Assembly: GCA_010405405.1 (NCBI GenBank)
Contig: MU004236.1
Location: 1,618,070 to 1,682,069 of the forward strand
From: Microthyrium microscopicum
Lineage: Eukaryota > Ascomycota > Dothideomycetes > Microthyriales > Microthyriaceae
DNA length: 64,000 nt
Direction of reading: 5' to 3'
The translations under genes were made by a program, and so were the position numbers. This document shows positions 7,674-64,000 of the stretch, one piece after another (the first letter of the stretch is position 1; each line of letters begins with the position of its first letter). The notes under the pieces were generated by a model that saw nothing but the letters and a program-made list of their open reading frames with translations, did no database searches and had not been told where the DNA came from.

Positions 7674-8099
7674 TCATGAAATCAGTCTTCTAGGTTTGAG
7701 ACCAGTTGATGGAGTTTTATCATACCCCTGTTGGCCGGCATTTCCACCACTTTCGGAGGTCATTTGATATACACTCCATAAATTCTGGCCTCCACACATT
7801 TGGAAAGGATATCCAGCGCAAGGATTGTTGCAAGAAGCTCCATCAACTAGAGCATCGTTTGGAGGCAGTGAGTCGCCACAGTAGCAGTCGGTTCCATTGA
7901 CTAGACCCATTGTGATGTGCTCAAGCTGAAAGCATGTATTTCGGCAGTACCCAACAGATTGATAGATGTCAGACCGCTGAAAATGCATAGGGACGTAGTT
8001 GTAGCATCCAACGTAAGCTGAAGTCTCCTGGGCTGTTGAAGGAGCGCCGAGAAAGGCTAACGCCGTGGTGGCAAGATATGCCAACCATGGGAAATGCAT
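7674..8099 (-). CDS. Small secreted single-WSC-domain protein
   Basis: The protein is 141 aa, in one exon. A signal peptide (MHFPWLAYLATTALAFLGAPSTAQ) is followed by one WSC domain at about residues 27-112 with the expected eight cysteines (YVGCYN, YCRNTC, DCYCGD, SCNNPC, QMCGG) and the GLVNGTDCYCGDSLP core. WSC domains are carbohydrate-binding modules of fungal cell-wall sensors and some secreted enzymes. There is no Ser/Thr stalk and no transmembrane helix, so it is not a full Wsc1-type sensor. It probably acts as a free wall- or glucan-binding protein. The C-terminal 28 residues are low in features. The convergent M28 gene leaves no room for a longer 3' exon. Confidence 0.82.
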   Translation of the reverse strand: MHFPWLAYLATTALAFLGAPSTAQETSAYVGCYNYVPMHFQRSDIYQSVGYCRNTCFQLEHITMGLVNGTDCYCGDSLPPNDALVDGASCNNPCAGYPFQMCGGQNLWSVYQMTSESGGNAGQQGYDKTPSTGLKPRRLIS

Positions 8100-9938
8100 G
8101 TTTGAGTATTTGAGAACAAAATCTGTCTATGCAGGTGTTTAGGGAATGTGAAATCGTCAATATAGACGGAGGACAGTTATGACGGTATTGTGAACGCCTT
8201 TTTACCCCTTTCAAATTGTGGTGGCAGTGCAACATGCCATCTGATTGGTGGAGGCTTAACAGCCTACGGGTTCAGCCTTATAGGTGCAGAAGGCTGAATA
8301 TTCACTATTCACCCATCATTTACTTGATCTTCTAACTTCCAGCAGTTTCTTTCTGTCAGACGAATTATCTCCCAGTGGCGCGTCATTGCAACTTTTCAGC
8401 TCTCATAAGGTCGCACCAGTTTTTATCTTCTCCATTATATCGACAGTTTTCCTGACGAATTGCAGTTCATAAAAAGTAGGAGGTGAAACGCCTGCTCGCC
8501 AGTACATTCGTGGATATAAGTATACGAGGGAGATGTGGGCGGTCCTCTTATTTTTTGCTGCTGTCAGTGGCCACTTATACGTTATGAAAGGATTCCAAAG
8601 TCACAGACAAGGCGTCATTGGTCTTTCAGTCGACTCAGCCTCGACATTTCTCTTTTAAGCCATTTACAGGGATCACGCGGGCTTTGCTGAAGAGCCACTC
8701 CAGAGCCTTATGGAAGCCTATTTCAATTTGGATAACATAATAGCTGACATCGAAGGTGTCGATCGGGTTTTGAAGTTGAGGAAGCCCAGGAATGGGGAAG
8801 AGTGAAGGTGAGCTTTGTCGACAACACAGGCCATTCTGCAATACCTGGGCTGCTGACATTGCACTAGTAAACATTCCAAACCGCTTTTGGGACGTTGATC
8901 GGCAGGTCCCAACCTTGATAACAACTGGAAGCGTTCATCTCTCTCAAGAGCAGCCAAAGACGTCCATGCGTTGAGCGTGACAGTTCTGGCTGAGGACAAA
9001 AGAGTCAAATGGAATCACAAGAACTCCAATGAATAAAAGAAGATCCTGAGCTTACAGAAGTGGAAATGCAGATGCATTCAGACGCTGATCAAGTAAGCTA
9101 TGTGCCACCTTTAAGTGCGAATCCGCATCGATTGCGATATCTACCACCAAGTGTGATATCTACCACCAAGTGCGATATCTACCACCAAGTGCGTTATCTA
9201 CCATCAACTGCTATACCTACCATCAGCTGCGATATCTACCATCAACTGCGACGGTTATGATCATCCTTTGTGCTAACAAATGCCGTTTCTTCTGATAACA
9301 GACAACATGAATTAACATTACGTATATCGATACTTAAGAGCACCCAACAAGGCAACAGAGAATCTATGTGATGTCTGCCTCATTTAGCATCTGAAATGTA
9401 CGGGGCTGTGTCAGTAAACCTGAAAAAGGAGGCGGCTTTGGAGGCTGAGCAGCCACTGCAGCTTCAGACGCACTGCACGTTGATGGGCGTACGAGACATA
9501 GCCTGACGAGATCAAGATTCTTTGCTAACAAAGTTCCTCTGGTTTTCATGAGAATTTCAGATTCGATATTTTTGCAACTTGTCGTTGCGCACTGCACGTG
9601 AAACCTTCAACGATCATCTCAACAAGCATATTATATCTCATAGAAGGAAGCATCCTGCTCAGGTGTACTTACCATCCGGTTTATCCTCGACACCACCACT
9701 TGCATATTGCCCCGCACCACTATCTTCACCGCAAGGAACCAGAGCCTTATTGCATATCATTTGGGCAATTACCACAGAGCCCATTTGTTCATGGCCAAGT
9801 CGAGATGACTTCAAGCATCAAGCCAAACTTCGATTAGGTCAGAGTAAGCCATGTTAGCCCAGCCTGACGGGTAAACACACTTTCACTCGCGAGTTGCGAT
9901 CAAGCCAAGCTCGACGATATAGAGTCCATCGTCTTGCA
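8100..9938. other. Intergenic interval upstream of the STAND-Rho gene
   Basis: This 1.8-kb stretch lies between two divergent genes. I find no coding frame I can support. Overlapping frames at about 8,635-9,008 (minus) and 9,579-9,857 (plus) look like chance or an unrecognisable relic. A run TGGATATAAGTATACG near 8,511-8,526 resembles a TATA-type element but has no gene assigned to it. The 19-bp tandem repeat at 9134-9247 is the only clear structure. Confidence 0.45.
9134..9247. repeat. Six-copy 19-bp tandem repeat
   Basis: Six units of exactly 19 bp start at 9134, 9153, 9172, 9191, 9210 and 9229. The consensus is gcgatatctaccaccaagt, with later units carrying atcaact at the end. Units 1-3 are nearly identical and units 4-6 form a slightly diverged sub-group, so the array probably grew in two steps. 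Because 19 is not a multiple of three, the array is not coding. It ends about 690 bp upstream of the STAND-Rho start codon. Confidence 0.93.
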
Positions 9939-12900
9939 ATGGATCCTCTGTCAATAACGGCGGCTGTTGTTGGTCTGCTCACCGGATGTGGCAAGATTGG
10001 ATTTGCCTTGAAGGAATTCCATGATGGCTCTAACCATGCCTCCACCGCTGTCAACGGCCTCATCCTTGACGTGGAAGGTTTTGTCAAAGTCTTGGAGCTC
10101 ATGAAAGCCACGATTGAGCAGCCAAGCATCCAGACATCACTGCACAGTACTGGCCATATCGGCAATCACTGGAGCAACATCACAAAGCTCATCAATAATG
10201 CCCAGCAAACCCTTGCTAGGCTGAGCGACATGCTCGAAAAGGTCAACAAGAGCGTCAAGTTTCTTGATGGAGCGAGAAAACATCTTCGACTGAAGTCTGC
10301 ATCTGAAGAAATTGCTACTTTCCACCTTGAGATGAAATCTTACAAAGATACGTTACAGCTCTCGATACAAACTGTGATATCGTAGGTGTTTGAAACCTTC
10401 AAAAAAAAAATGCAGGCTTACTAAACGTGCCTAGGTGGAATCAAGTCAACTTTCAGGAGTCCACAAGTCAAATCTTACCTAGCTTGGAAGACTTGAGTTT
10501 AGAGGTTAGACGGATTGCCTCAGTTCTTCGGGAGCGAATGATTCAACTGCAAAGCACTGGAGACTCGACCATAGAACAGCATCAGCTTATAACTGCTGAT
10601 AATTTGACAAACTGTGTCCGCTCCGCTGCCTCAGTAGTTTCATCTGCGTCGACCATTCTTGGAATCTCTCCTGAAAATAATGTCCCGGGTGCTCAATCAT
10701 CAGAATTCGGAGACTGTTTTCCGATCGAACACAACGAGACCATGCAAAGATGGTTATCCTCCGTTAGTGTGTACAGATCAGGTCCTTCTCGGGTGCCGGA
10801 CGACACAAGAAGCGCCATATGGCCCGCTGAAGACAACGAAGTTCACCATTCAGATTCTGACGATGACCTGGAGCAAGAGATCGTTCAAACACTTCTCGAA
10901 AAAGGAAAAGAGAAACTCACTTCAGACGACATAGTTGCTGCTGAGCGTCTATTTCTTAACTGCCTTGCGCGGAGCTACCAAGTCAGATCTTTGAGGCTGA
11001 CTTTCGAGCAACCAGTTCTTAACCTTTTGAAGGAGATATATTACTCTCAGGAAGACTGGAGCCAGCTTCAGGGTATATTGATAAAGCAAGTGGCACTACA
11101 ATCACGAATTGCTACCAGAGGTGGCGATGACGGGCATACTCTGCTTCTTGAGCTCTCTGATGCGCTTCTGAAGCTCAAGAATTATACTGAAGCTCGTCTG
11201 TACGGTAGAAGAGCTCTCAAAACAGCCCGCAAGCGTCAAGCATCATCCAGAGTGGAGGCTACTCGAGCTTCTCTAGATATGCTAATTAGCATTTGCCAAG
11301 CTGATAATGATTTGGATGGGCAAGAAGCCTATCAGCTGATATTGACTGATCTAATTCAGAAGACCAAGTTGCAATCGACTGGGTCCACACTGCCATCTTC
11401 TCCTTCTGAAGTGCAGAATAAGATTCTGACTGAAAATTCCACAGCAAATGCGTCTCATCTCAAATCCGCGTCTGCAGGCCTTGTTGGCTTAGAAACTGAG
11501 CATGAGCGTCGAGAAACACGAGAAGAGCTACAACCAAGTGATGGAGAACAAGGTTCATCGCAGCCGCAATCCACAAGCATAGCCCAACCTATTGAGGCTT
11601 CACCTATTGGCGATTCAAGACCAGTGCAATCCTCAGAGATAGCATTGAATGCTGCAAGGTAAACGCGACATGTGAGCAGAGAAAAAGTTGCTAATGGTTA
11701 ATAGTTCGAAATCACTCGAAATATCGAGGCCAGAAGCAGAGATTTCAAGAATGGTTGATCATGCGTCTGTTATGCCAGGAAAACACAGCACGGAAGGCCA
11801 AACCTATAACGAGTCGAACCCAAAATCTCGACACTATATACATTCCGAATACGATCCCTTCAGAATTTCAAGCTCATTAAGTCTGGAACTTCGACCCTCC
11901 TCAGTAATTCTTCATGCTAGCCCTGTGCGTGATGTCGCTGTAAGCCTGGTTTCTCTAGAGCAACAGATCGTTTGTGATGGCGAAGCTACCATATCTTCTT
12001 CCTCTAATTTGTCTCTTGCAAGTACTGGCGGAAGACGAGAGAGGCAACTGCTAAATTCAATGAATGTGGAACAAGCACATACTGACAATACTCTGCCATT
12101 TCCAAGTGCTGAGTCTTCCAATTCGGAAGACTCAAAATCCATTTCTGCAATACAACTTGCTGGTGTCCAAATCTGGGCCGTGACGAGTGAATCCAAGAAA
12201 GAAACAATAACTTTGGCGACAGGTTTAAAGTTGATGGACACGCAAACCGTTATGACTGTTAACGCCTCTGAAAGGCTCGCTTTCAAGCTGGCTCTGGAGA
12301 AACATTTAAGAAATTTCACATATAACGCAATGCCCGTTATCGGAAATGGCGCGTGTCTTGAAAACGTGGTCCTACTCATCAACGGCAGCTATCACGATCT
12401 ACCTTTAGAAGAGAGAAACGTAGAACTGCTTCTGCAGGTGGCTCGAAAATGTAAAGCCATCATCTTTTATCAACTCTCACCTGATCGAAACAGGGATATA
12501 CTGAGTCTAATACGACAATACAAGGGTCAAAAACAATCCAGAAAGGCCATTCTGCTCTCCATTGCCAACACTAGACCTCAGATCTCAATACTCGAAACCT
12601 CTAGAATATTCGCTGAAGGATTGACTCAATCTCGTTTTACAGCAAGACAAGCCAACCAAGCCATTTCTAACATTCCAAGACTCTTTCTGTCACCGCTTGA
12701 TAGCCTGCGATGCGATGCTCGGAGAAAAGTTGTAGTTGTAGGAGACCCCATCCAGGGAAAGACGGCTCTCATGATGTAATCCTTCTGTATAGTCCTTCAT
12801 TGGGATACTTGTGCTAACATCTCCTGCTCTAGCCGATTTGCGCGGGGCGAAATGATTGAGGTAAGAACAGATCCTATTGATGTCTCTGATGGTCGTAGCT

Positions 12901-13564
12901 TGCTAAGATCCATAATCCAGGTTAACAGGGCAACGGTGGGTCTTGACCAGTACGTTGGCTGGGGTTATTGTGTGGATCAAAAAGTCGAGCTGTCTATTTG
13001 GGATACACCAGGAATCGAAGATTATGACAGATTACGCCCACTATCGTATCCTGATAGTCATGCTATCCTGATATGTTTCGGTATTGATGCTCCGGACTCA
13101 CTCGATAATGTACAGGAAAAGGTTTGTGTGTCTATGCTTTCTAGTAGATGTCGCTTTTGGTATCGTGCTAACACAAGAGAATAGTGGATACCTGAGGTGC
13201 TCCATTTCTGCAGTGGACTGCCCATAATTCTTGTAGGCCTAAAAAAAGAACAGCGCACCAATTCAAGTACAATCGAAGACTTGCATAAAACGGGCCAAGT
13301 GCCTGTTACTATGGATCAAGTAAGACGATGTTTTGGGTACAAGTACCATAACTTGCAACCAGCTAATTGATCTTGTAGGGAGAAGATGTTGCAAAGAGGA
13401 TAGGCGCTGTAGCGTATTTAGAGTGTTCAGCTTTTACAGGCGAAGGCGTCACTGAAGTATTTGATCATGTTGCAATGGTAACTACCCAGTCTGTTGCAGT
13501 CAAGACGACGACGAAAAGCCTTCGCACGCGACTAGGTATACGAAAGAGTCAAATCAGAGAATGA
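9939..13564 (+). CDS. STAND N-terminal domain / TPR-like / Rho1-like GTPase fusion protein, six exons
   Basis: Exons are 9939-10381, 10435-11658, 11705-12775, 12833-13121, 13185-13319 and 13379-13564. All junctions are GT..AG and keep frame; introns are 46-63 nt, several with CTAAC-type branch points. The product is 1,115 aa. Residues 1-148 ([27 protein letters not shown]...) match the fungal N-terminal domain of STAND proteins. Residues ~292-455 are helical repeats resembling TPRs ([31 protein letters not shown]). Residues ~560-890 I do not recognise. Residues ~897-1095 are a GTPase domain very close to fungal Rho1: [56 protein letters not shown]. The P-loop is GDPIQGKT (902-909). The Gln of DTAGQE is Ile (974), and the Asp of the KKD guanine motif is Glu (1031). 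An insert of about 20 residues precedes switch I, whose Thr (947) is kept. The tail is basic with no CAAX box, so no prenylation is expected. Likely a signalling or allorecognition-type receptor; function inferred. Confidence 0.82.
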
Positions 13565-62188: not shown

Positions 62189-64000
62189 ATGGTCGTGGTA
62201 AGATCCGGCATCTTGCGCCTGTATCATTTTCGGCCTAAACCAATTCTATTCTCGTCTCAATGGCTTCTTCAACATCAAATTCCTGTCCAGCGCTTTTCAG
62301 TCATATCCAAAACATACCTCCAAGGACCAACACAACCATCTCCAGACCCAAATCCACTCCCTGTTGACAATGAGCTACCCCCAGACTCAACATCTATTCC
62401 TAAAGGAGCATGGAAGGGAACTGCTTTCAAAATGGCTGAGAGCGCACTTACTACTCTTGCATCCATAACAATTCTAGGGTTAGTGCTCGATATCATGTTA
62501 CACTTGTGTATCCAGCTAAATATGTACTAGACTTATTGGATACTCATATACGTTGTACTATAAGCGCATGGTTCTCGCAAAGATGGAAGTTAGTAGTTTT
62601 CGGATGCTTTCTCATCTCCTGTATTGACCATTGCTCCAGAATGCTTTCACGCCTGGCGACCCAGTCCTGGATCTAGCCTATTCACGGGGCGCATCACCAG
62701 ATGGGGAGAGCGCAAGTGATCACCAGCATTGGGTCCAACGACCAGAACAATCAGTCATAGACGCCATTATCGCTGGTCGTCTGCAGGAACACTACTACCT
62801 GCTCATCGGCGAAAAGGGCGTCGGCAAGTCATCCATGCTCATCGACGCTATGCGTAAAATCGATGGCGAAGGTGTGGCCATGTTTGAAGCGCATGCCGAT
62901 CTGGAAATATTTCGCGTCCGGCTAGGCAAATCCCTGGATTTCGAGTACCACGAGGACAACATTGGATCGCTGTTTTCGATACGTGGACCTCGTGATGCAA
63001 GTGCAATTTTGGATATTGAGCGTGCGTTCAATAAGCTGGAGAAAGTTGCATTGAAGCGAAGAAAGGCGGTTGGCAGACCGCTGATCCTCATCATCAATAG
63101 CGTTCATCTGCTTAGAGATGACGAGGATGGACGCGATTTGATCGAGTTGATCCAACAAAGAGCGGAGCAATGGGCTGCCTCGAATTTGGTGACGGTGGTC
63201 ATGAATAGCGACGACTATTGGGTTTACGAACGACTGAAGAACTATGCGACTCGTCTGAAAGTCCTGCCCGTACTTGATTTGACCAAGGATGCGGCGCTAT
63301 CAGCACTCAAATCTTATCGTTTAAGATATTTCAACGAAAATACCTCCAAGTCTATGCTCGAAGAGGTATATTCAAGAGTTGGTGGGCGGGTCTCATTCTT
63401 GAGTCGGGTGGCGAAAGAGAAAAACATGCTGCAAGTCTGCCAGTACATTGAGGAGGCTGAAAAGACGTGGTTTCTAAACAAGGTACGCCAAAAAGAAGAC
63501 CGGATGTCTATTACCATACCTAACAGTTGCAGTGCTGGATACTTGGCTCAGAAATGGATGACGATGTTATGGATCAGCAGAAATTCGCGTCTGCGGCCAT
63601 GGTGCTAGCCAAAGCACTGGTAGAACAAGAAGCAGAACAGCATCTAGACCACCAATCCGACGACGAACAGGACACAGACTCCACAGGGGTAATAACAAAA
63701 TCAGTCAAAGATTCCAAGGGGAACTACGTGCTCCCCTCTCTCCCACTTCACAAAGCTCGCGAAGTCATGACGCGAGCCGACTTCATTCAAGCTTACGACC
63801 ACGACAATATCTTCACCATCAGCGCTGACGGCAGAGTGCGAGCTGATAGTGTGCCAATGATGACTGCCTTCCGTTCCGTCTGCAATGAACCTGGATTCGC
63901 CAAGTTCCTTGAAGACACACTTGATCGCATTAGCGATATCGAATCCTTGGGACGTACGAGAGAACTTACCATCAAGGATCTCTGGAAGGGCGGCAAGTAC
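62189..64000 (+). CDS. Membrane-anchored AAA-type ATPase, probably mitochondrial, 3' end beyond window
   Basis: Exons are 62189-62478, 62531-62588, 62640-63482 and 63533 to the window end (553 codons so far, still open). The three introns are 50-52 nt with GT..AG and, in the third, a CCTAAC branch point. The start gives a basic, Ser/Arg-rich leader (MVVVRSGILRLYHFRPKPILFSSQ) like a mitochondrial presequence. A transmembrane segment follows at ~85-105 (LTTLASITILGLIGYSYTLYY). The P-loop is LLIGEKGVGKSSML. The Walker B position reads PLILIINSVHLL, with Asn-Ser in place of the usual acidic pair, followed by RDDEDG. Other conserved-looking blocks are LVTVVMNSDDYWVYERLK, GGRVSFLSRVAKEKNML and KTWFLNKCWILGSEMDDDVMDQQK. 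It resembles an uncharacterised fungal ATPase family; I know no defined function. Confidence 0.82.

What the first reader, a model, noticed from the sequence alone, without database searches (positions are those of the whole stretch)
9939..13564. A Rho1-like GTPase fused to a fungal STAND N-terminal domain and TPR-like repeats
Seen: a six-exon frame joins a [18 protein letters not shown] STAND leader, helical repeats, an unrecognised ~330-residue middle, and a domain that is nearly Rho1 in long blocks ([38 protein letters not shown]). Known: STAND/NLR-type fungal proteins normally carry NACHT or NB-ARC as the switch, followed by repeats. Inference: here a small GTPase may replace the NTPase switch, or a copy of Rho1 may serve as bait for factors that attack Rho1 and the cell-wall integrity pathway (an integrated decoy). 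I know no named family with this order.
Basis: partly seen in the sequence, partly recalled or inferred. Interest (0 to 1): 0.82.

Follow-up and report, generated by a model that had tools for sequence, protein, structure and literature searches.

The report
Death-domain protein carrying dead Rho1
A fungal gene joins a probable cell-death-type front end to worn-down, catalytically dead copies of two of the fungus's own proteins (the lipid pump Drs2 and the switch protein Rho1), which looks like a bait or sensor built from the cell's own parts.

Summary
Introns 3-6 sit at the codon and phase of the four introns of the genome's own rho1, intron 1 matches two paralogs; only the intron-2 join rests on splice signals alone.

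The 'unrecognised middle' is a degenerate Drs2 flippase P-domain, its catalytic motifs lost. The C-terminus is a rho1 copy with Ras-G12P-like and Q61I-like changes, altered G4 and no CAAX. It keeps 50 of 55 residues of rho1 64-118 against 62 of 116 elsewhere (block chosen after seeing the data), with synonymous sites saturated in both: selection on a face rather than on a switch.

The N-terminus is HeLo-like (PF17111) by relation: below cut-off here, above it in two paralogs that carry WD40 where this has Drs2+Rho1. No NACHT or NB-ARC was found. Best reading: a HeLo-like/TPR protein whose sensor is two dead host-protein copies (decoy or guard). 'GTPase replaces the NTPase switch' is disfavoured. 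Fungal proteomes could not be searched, so spread and novelty are uncertain.

The parts
9939..10381 (+). exon 1 (aa 1-148): HeLo-like/PF17111-type helical bundle
   Evidence: PF17111 21.8 bits, below cut-off 27.2; paralog N-termini L029 37.3 and L030 33.6 bits above it; AF2 model of aa 1-147 pLDDT 86.1, four long helices plus a short one
10382..10434 (+). intron 1 (53 nt)
   Evidence: same codon and phase (2) as in paralogs L029 and L030
10435..11658 (+). exon 2 (aa 148-556): helical region with [11 protein letters not shown] motif, weak TPR (aa 343-414), low-complexity-looking linker
   Evidence: aligned with L030 to aa ~456 and with the part of L029 given (to aa ~254); TPR_12 16.4 bits, below cut-off 30.1
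11659..11704 (+). intron 2 (46 nt); the only join not backed by a related gene
   Evidence: GT...CTAAT...AG; an in-frame TAA follows the donor if it is not spliced
11705..12775 (+). exon 3 (aa 556-913): linker, Drs2-like P-domain copy, start of the GTPase with P-loop
   Evidence: one open stretch (ORF 11676-12779)
12006..12677 (+). degenerate Drs2 P4-ATPase P-domain copy (aa 657-880)
   Evidence: 29 of 40 P4-invariant residues changed
12741..12764 (+). G1/P-loop GDPIQGKT (aa 902-909)
   Evidence: rho1 has GDGACGKT
12776..12832 (+). intron 3 (57 nt), same position and phase as rho1 intron 1
12833..12860 (+). exon 4 (aa 913-922)
12921..13121 (+). exon 5 (aa 923-989): switch I, switch II and following helix region
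13017..13244 (+). conserved Rho1 block, rho1 residues 64-118 (aa 955-1009), interrupted by intron 5
   Evidence: 50 of 55 identical, pN 0.096, pS 0.911
13122..13184 (+). intron 5 (63 nt), same position and phase as rho1 intron 3
13185..13319 (+). exon 6 (aa 990-1034)
13320..13378 (+). intron 6 (59 nt), same position and phase as rho1 intron 4
13379..13564 (+). exon 7 (aa 1035-1095 and stop): G5 region, C-terminus without CAAX
   Evidence: own rho1 ends in CLVL; the copy ends in SQIRE

Best explanation
It is one gene for a sensor/executor protein of the fungal HeLo-like group. A HeLo-like helical bundle (in studied relatives a membrane-targeting death domain) and a TPR-like scaffold carry, in place of the WD40 part of its two closest paralogs, catalytically dead copies of two of the cell's own proteins: the P-domain of the Drs2 flippase and the GTPase Rho1. 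Most likely the pseudo-Rho1 (through its preserved switch II-alpha3 face) and the pseudo-P-domain bind partners or attackers of Rho1 and Drs2, and a change in that binding releases the N-terminal bundle: a tandem integrated decoy or guard. Shown: gene structure (intron 2 excepted), the two host sources, loss of both sets of catalytic residues, amino-acid conservation concentrated in one Rho1 block. Inferred: partner binding, autoinhibition, cell-death output.
For: All four rho1 introns are shared at identical codon and phase. Synonymous differences are saturated (pS 0.89 over 176 aligned codons) while pN is 0.28: the frame was kept by selection. Rho1 residues 64-118 are kept 50 of 55 against 62 of 116 elsewhere (Fisher p 7.6e-7, but the block was picked after seeing the identities, so p is optimistic); in the five real Rho paralogs the same block is 0.51-0.64 identical to rho1 against 0.50-0.63 for the rest, the largest gap being 35 of 55 against 51 of 103 in L037. 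Block pS 0.911 speaks against recent gene conversion. Invariant Rho residues changed 10 of 43, including G14P, A61P, Q63I, D120E. The Drs2 copy loses TGD, the motif-III Lys and DGxND, and no DKTG string is present. The source genes lie on other contigs (C1 and C11), so two captures are needed. The closest paralogs share the chassis but end in WD40. PF17111 is called HeLo-like (PMC9815663, passages), and HeLo-like domains are reported to share the cytotoxic, membrane-targeting properties of HeLo (PMC12881547, passages). Precedents: CHK2-like kinase domains as putative integrated decoys in Sordariales NLRs (PMC12258605, sections 14 and 20); in mammals pyrin indirectly guards RhoA (PMC11781737, passages).
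Against: No transcript, no partner, no phenotype. The N-terminus is below the PF17111 cut-off and its model matches no solved structure at E <= 0.001 (best 8.8e-3), so HeLo function is by relation only. TPR is sub-threshold. Residues that known Rho-modifying enzymes hit (Y34, N41, Q63; recalled) are changed, only T37 stays, which speaks against a bait for covalent modification. No NTPase for NLR-type activation. Retention of rho1-only residues (13 of 26) is partly just descent. The Drs2 part shows no preserved face of its own: invariant and variable positions are kept about equally (11 of 40 and 41 of 129).
Confidence: 0.45

Rival explanations
1. A house regulator, not an immune receptor: the dead Rho1 and dead Drs2 P-domain act as pseudoenzyme competitors or scaffolds that titrate Rho1 GAPs, GEFs or effectors and tune polarised secretion, much as pseudoGTPase domains take part in p190RhoGAP.
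For: Pseudoenzyme signature with one preserved block; Drs2 and Rho1 both serve polarised exocytosis in yeast (PMC11576722, passages; see also PMC5047699, passages); pseudoGTPase precedent (PMC5593906, abstract and outline).
Against: Proteins with related N-termini here carry NACHT-ankyrin, ankyrin or WD40; fast change (branch 0.78 against 0.01 for rho1) is more like an arms race, though it may also be relaxed constraint.
Confidence: 0.28
2. One reading: the Rho-type GTPase replaces NACHT/NB-ARC as the nucleotide switch.
For: P-loop GK-T, T37 and DxxG are kept.
Against: P at the G12 position, I for the catalytic Gln, E for the G4 Asp, an insertion in switch I; 16 of 31 nucleotide-contact positions kept (list recalled). 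Rho proteins without Gly at the G12 position, such as Rnd, are GTP-loaded and do not cycle (PMC13236570, passages), so at best a fixed state.
Confidence: 0.08
3. Two separate genes: HeLo-like/TPR (stop at intron 2 if unspliced) and a Drs2-Rho chimera starting at ATG 11694.
For: An in-frame TAA lies at 11660-11662 and an in-frame ATG at 11694.
Against: Only 31 bp between them; a standard 46-nt intron with CTAAT branch-like site fits.
Confidence: 0.08
4. A chance chimera on the way to decay, without function.
For: Degenerate motifs; position about 7 kb from a 41-kb AT-rich block.
Against: 1,095 codons open; pN 0.28 against pS 0.89 in the Rho core, pN 0.48 against pS 0.82 in the Drs2 part.
Confidence: 0.06

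Closest known systems
CHK2/PRD-4-derived PKinase domains in Sordariales T-NACHT NLRs (PMC12258605)
   Same: A copy of a single-copy host signalling domain at the C-terminus of a fungal receptor-like protein, proposed as integrated decoy
   Different: Those have a full NACHT tripartite architecture; here no NTPase was found, and two different host proteins are copied in tandem, both with lost catalytic residues
HeLo-like (PF17111) proteins, with HeLo and the MLKL four-helix bundle (PMC9815663, PMC12881547)
   Same: N-terminal helical bundle of the PF17111 group
   Different: Sub-threshold match; no amyloid motif looked for; no function tested; no Rho or flippase C-terminus in the passages seen
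Rho1 (fungal RhoA-type GTPase)
   Same: 64% identity over 176 columns with own rho1, same four intron positions
   Different: Catalytic Gln, G12-equivalent, G4 Asp and CAAX lost; fused to other domains
Drs2-type P4-ATPase
   Same: Second half of the P-domain, 29-31% identity
   Different: DKTGT absent, DGxND lost; only a soluble fragment of the pump
PseudoGTPases and constitutive Rho proteins (p190RhoGAP, PMC5593906; Rnd, PMC13236570)
   Same: GTPase fold with altered catalytic positions
   Different: Other architectures; the nucleotide state here is unknown

Membership tests
Fungal STAND/NLR | NACHT, NB-ARC or AAA NTPase | tested here: not met
   Pfam scan of the whole 1,095 aa at E <= 1 lists 8 families, none of these; the PF17111-related protein at L044 does have NACHT (44.9 bits, cut-off 26.7)
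Fungal STAND/NLR | C-terminal repeats (TPR/ANK/WD40) | tested here: inconclusive
   TPR_12 16.4 bits against cut-off 30.1, internal not C-terminal
HeLo-like (PF17111) | Profile match over the curated cut-off | tested here: inconclusive
   21.8 and 22.6 bits against 27.2; paralog N-termini 38-39% identical reach 37.3 and 33.6
HeLo-like (PF17111) | Membrane-targeting, cytotoxic bundle | not testable with these tools
   Helical-bundle model without significant PDB match
Rho GTPase (Rho1) | Descent from rho1 | tested here: met
   Four identical intron positions and phases; nearest to own rho1, 81/84, though the three-row Rho1 group gets only 51/43; the six best PDB matches are named Rho1
Rho GTPase (Rho1) | Catalytic and nucleotide-binding residues | tested here: not met
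   G14P, A61P, Q63I, D120E, switch-I insertion; P-loop GK-T, T37 and DxxG are kept
Rho GTPase (Rho1) | C-terminal CAAX | tested here: not met
   Ends SQIRE; rho1 ends CLVL
ROCO (Roc) | Roc domain better than plain Ras/Rho, with COR | tested here: not met
   Roc 58.6 bits is over its cut-off 27 but on the same stretch as Ras 124.5 bits; no COR family listed
P4-ATPase | DKTGT, TGD and DGxND motifs | tested here: not met
   No DKTG string; TSE and NTRPQ in place of TGD and DGAND
Integrated decoy | Duplicated host domain fused to an immune-receptor chassis | tested here: inconclusive
   Duplicated host domains: met (rho1; Drs2). Receptor chassis: HeLo-like/TPR shared with L029 and L030, but no NTPase
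Integrated decoy | Recognises an effector or non-self factor aimed at the host protein | not testable with these tools
   No interaction data

The most novel reading that the evidence does not exclude
A fungal immune-type receptor without an NTPase that watches polarised secretion with two tandem baits made from the cell's own Drs2 and Rho1: a double integrated decoy, and one built from a small GTPase, triggering HeLo-like membrane lysis when its pseudo-Rho1 face or pseudo-P-domain is engaged.
Probability: 0.28. Interest if true: 0.88.

Novelty: new variant of a known kind. Interest (0 to 1): 0.72.

Why it matters
Integrated decoys are established in plants (recalled) and so far, in what I read, only proposed in fungi (a CHK2-like kinase; PMC12258605). 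Here two unrelated host proteins were captured from two other contigs, both lost catalytic residues, and one block of Rho1 stayed nearly unchanged. That gives a concrete, testable idea of what fungi may guard (Rho1, flippase, polarised exocytosis), next to the guard model proposed for PLP-1 and the t-SNARE SEC-9 (PMC12881547, passages). Even if it is no immune receptor, a natural pseudo-Rho1 whose nucleotide pocket decayed while the switch II-alpha3 block stayed is a useful natural experiment on Rho1 binding.

Tried and rejected
Upstream relic: by eye, 8.7-8.9 kb looked like a decayed paralog; a profile of the three chassis proteins scores at best -3.0 bits in 8401-9900, while 40 random stretches of the window's first 8.3 kb, reversed, reach -1.2, so rejected. 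Gene conversion as the cause of the conserved Rho block: disfavoured by pS 0.911. Relatives outside this genome: none confirmed in genome contigs (58 pattern matches, 0 confirmed) or viral contigs (30, 0); these are prokaryote and virus collections, so this says little. First tree was spoilt by two bad outgroup fragments (L003, L007) that I had put in; rebuilt without them. In the rebuilt 8-row tree the copy joins own rho1 at 81/84 but the three-row Rho1 group has only 51/43 (56% of bootstrap trees); with one Ras-type outgroup the Rho1 fork is drawn open. Structure of the Drs2-like part (aa 635-903): mean pLDDT only 50.7, and the alignment fed to it contained five P4-ATPase rows, so the fold match to flippases (20 of 24 PDB hits at E <= 0.001; the other 4 are ORC) is not independent evidence. 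N-terminal fold search: 0 hits at E <= 0.001. Single shared introns are weak evidence: one search suggests that L036 and L037 are also interrupted at rho1 residue 98; the intron at 143 interrupts none of the five paralog alignments there; I did not model the paralog genes fully. Paper searches that listed no description of this architecture: (open-access library; listings only, beyond the papers named). The supplementary list of 185 non-canonical NLR domains of PMC12258605 was not seen and could hold a Ras or Rho domain.
Full report
What is there. The reported frame is a real gene on the + strand, ATG at 9939, stop ending at 13564. Exons: 9939-10381, 10435-11658, 11705-12775, 12833-12860, 12921-13121, 13185-13319, 13379-13564; introns of 53, 46, 57, 60, 63 and 59 nt; product 1,095 aa.

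How sure is the splicing? The genome's own rho1 gene (C11, about 426.5-427.5 kb, locus L033) has four introns, after codon positions 22.67, 32, 98 and 143. Window introns 3, 4, 5 and 6 fall at the same places and phases, allowing for one inserted residue in switch I. Intron 1 falls at the same codon and phase as in two chassis paralogs, L029 and L030. Intron 2 (11659-11704) has no such support; it has standard signals, and leaving it in gives a stop right after the donor. Because exon 3 is open from aa 556 to 912 and holds both the Drs2-like part and the P-loop, the Drs2-Rho fusion itself depends on no splice. The rho1 start codon is gone in the copy (alignment).

N-terminus. Pfam PF17111 (now named PigL_N; called HeLo-like in PMC9815663, passages) matches at 21.8 bits, under its cut-off of 27.2. 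In this genome PF17111 gives 10 matches, 6 over the cut-off, the window's own below it. I looked at all 9 others. The two nearest, L029 and L030, align at 37% (over the 268 aa given) and 32% (over 480 aa) with the window protein and carry WD40 repeats further on (54.1 and 283.1 bits). Of the others, L044 has NACHT plus ankyrin, L046 ankyrin, L041 beta-propeller matches none of which reaches its cut-off, and the part of L045 scanned nothing over cut-off; the C-termini of L042, L043 and L047 were only read by eye. AlphaFold2 on aa 1-147 with nine related sequences gives a helical bundle (pLDDT 86.1), but no solved structure matches at E <= 0.001. So the HeLo-like label is by relation, and its cell-killing function (PMC12881547, passages) is inferred.

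Middle. Residues 657-877 align with residues 834-1046 of a 1,281-codon P4-ATPase frame on contig C1 (29% identity, 73.9 bits). A search of the whole own genome with the middle alone found, beside itself, only this gene at E <= 1 (E 2.1e-13). Yeast Drs2 is the best PDB match (E 5.9e-5). Of the five P4-ATPases in the genome (six matches, one gene in two pieces) this one scores 73.9 bits; three others 38.1, 36.2 and 26.6, one none. The copy covers the second half of the phosphorylation domain and stops about where, by what is known of P4 pumps (recalled), the protein would enter the membrane. TGD is TSE, the motif-III QK is RN, DGAND is NTRPQ, and no DKTG string occurs. Of 40 positions invariant in the five P4-ATPases 29 are changed; of 129 variable ones 41 are kept. 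It can hardly be a working HAD domain.

C-terminus. Pfam Ras 124.5 bits, Roc 58.6 on the same stretch; the six best of 769 PDB matches are named Rho1. The tree puts it with own rho1 (81/84) on a branch of 0.78 against 0.01 for rho1; the wider Rho1 group is weakly supported (51/43). The intron evidence is the stronger one. Judged by positions where all paralogs present (at least four of five) agree with rho1, the copy has changed 10 of 43; the paralogs, each left out in turn, change 6 of 49, 7 of 50, 6 of 49, 3 of 41 and 5 of 42. Changed are the G12-equivalent (G14P), A61, the catalytic Q63, the G4 Asp (D120E), P36, F39, N41, L121 and, conservatively, L22 and L57; switch I has one extra residue. 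Kept are GK-T of the P-loop, T37 and DxxG. Of 31 nucleotide-contact positions (list recalled) 16 are kept. There is no CAAX box.

The most telling result: rho1 residues 64-118 (by recalled RhoA structure switch II, alpha2, beta4, alpha3, beta5) are kept 50 of 55 times, the remaining core 62 of 116 (Fisher p 7.6e-7). At positions that vary among the paralogs it is 37 of 42 against 41 of 85. In the five real paralogs the block is 0.51-0.64 identical to rho1 and the rest 0.50-0.63. I chose the block after seeing the identities along the chain, so the p-value is optimistic. Synonymous sites are equally saturated in both (pS 0.911 and 0.894) while pN is 0.096 against 0.344, and of 49 identical degenerate codons in the block only 14 are the same codon. 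So this is old and not a recent gene-conversion tract: selection held one stretch of the protein while the nucleotide pocket was let go. Saturation means that no exact dN/dS can be given.

How it most likely works. A working switch would keep its pocket; a relic would keep neither. A pocket let go with a kept face fits a protein that needs to be bound like Rho1 but not to act like Rho1: a bait, a guard-type sensor or a competitor. For the Drs2 copy only the loss of catalysis is shown, no preserved face. The chassis is related to HeLo-like proteins whose other versions here carry WD40 or NACHT-ankyrin. I therefore favour a tandem decoy or guard that releases the N-terminal bundle (0.45) over a non-immune pseudoenzyme regulator (0.28). 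Drs2 and Rho1 meet in polarised exocytosis in yeast (Drs2 shapes post-Golgi vesicles; exocyst Sec3 binds Rho1; PMC11576722, passages), and SEC-9, for which a guard model with the NLR PLP-1 has been proposed, is a t-SNARE (PMC12881547, passages). That this protein watches the same route is my inference. Against a bait for covalent modification: Y34, N41 and Q63 are changed, only T37 stays (sites recalled).

Novelty. Putative integrated decoys in fungi were proposed in 2025 for CHK2-like kinase domains in NLRs of Sordariales (PMC12258605, sections 14 and 20 read). The term 'gtpase' has 0 and 'rho' 1 occurrence in that paper's main text (that one place was not identified), and its supplementary list of 185 domains was not seen. 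My searches listed no description of a Rho or flippase copy in such a protein, in an open-access library only. No fungal proteome was searchable, so the same order may exist, annotated or not, in other fungi.

Noticed in passing
window 7674-8126 (-): A small WSC-domain protein (PF01822, 56.3 bits) lies 1.8 kb upstream; WSC sensors feed Rho1 in yeast (recalled). Possibly coincidence.
   Followed up: no
window about 21000-62000: A 41-kb block of 19-30% GC per kb between normal-GC flanks: an AT-rich isochore, perhaps RIP-mutated repeats or a centromere.
   Followed up: no
window 62628-63605 (+): AAA_16 ATPase match (40.5 bits) just beyond the AT-rich block.
   Followed up: no
L029 6191-7534: The stretch with the WD40 of this chassis paralog also holds a UBA match (24.0 bits, cut-off 22.4).
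   Followed up: no
L044 2781-6607: A full NLR-like gene in the same genome: PF17111-like N-terminus, NACHT, ankyrin repeats.
   Followed up: partly
window about 9130-9260: Short direct repeats of about 20 bp (gatatctaccaccaagtgc-like) upstream of the gene, seen by eye.
   Followed up: no
L043 and L047: Two further PF17111-like proteins whose N-termini resemble each other (GF-VGD near the start) and which seem by eye to share a second, unidentified domain.
   Followed up: no
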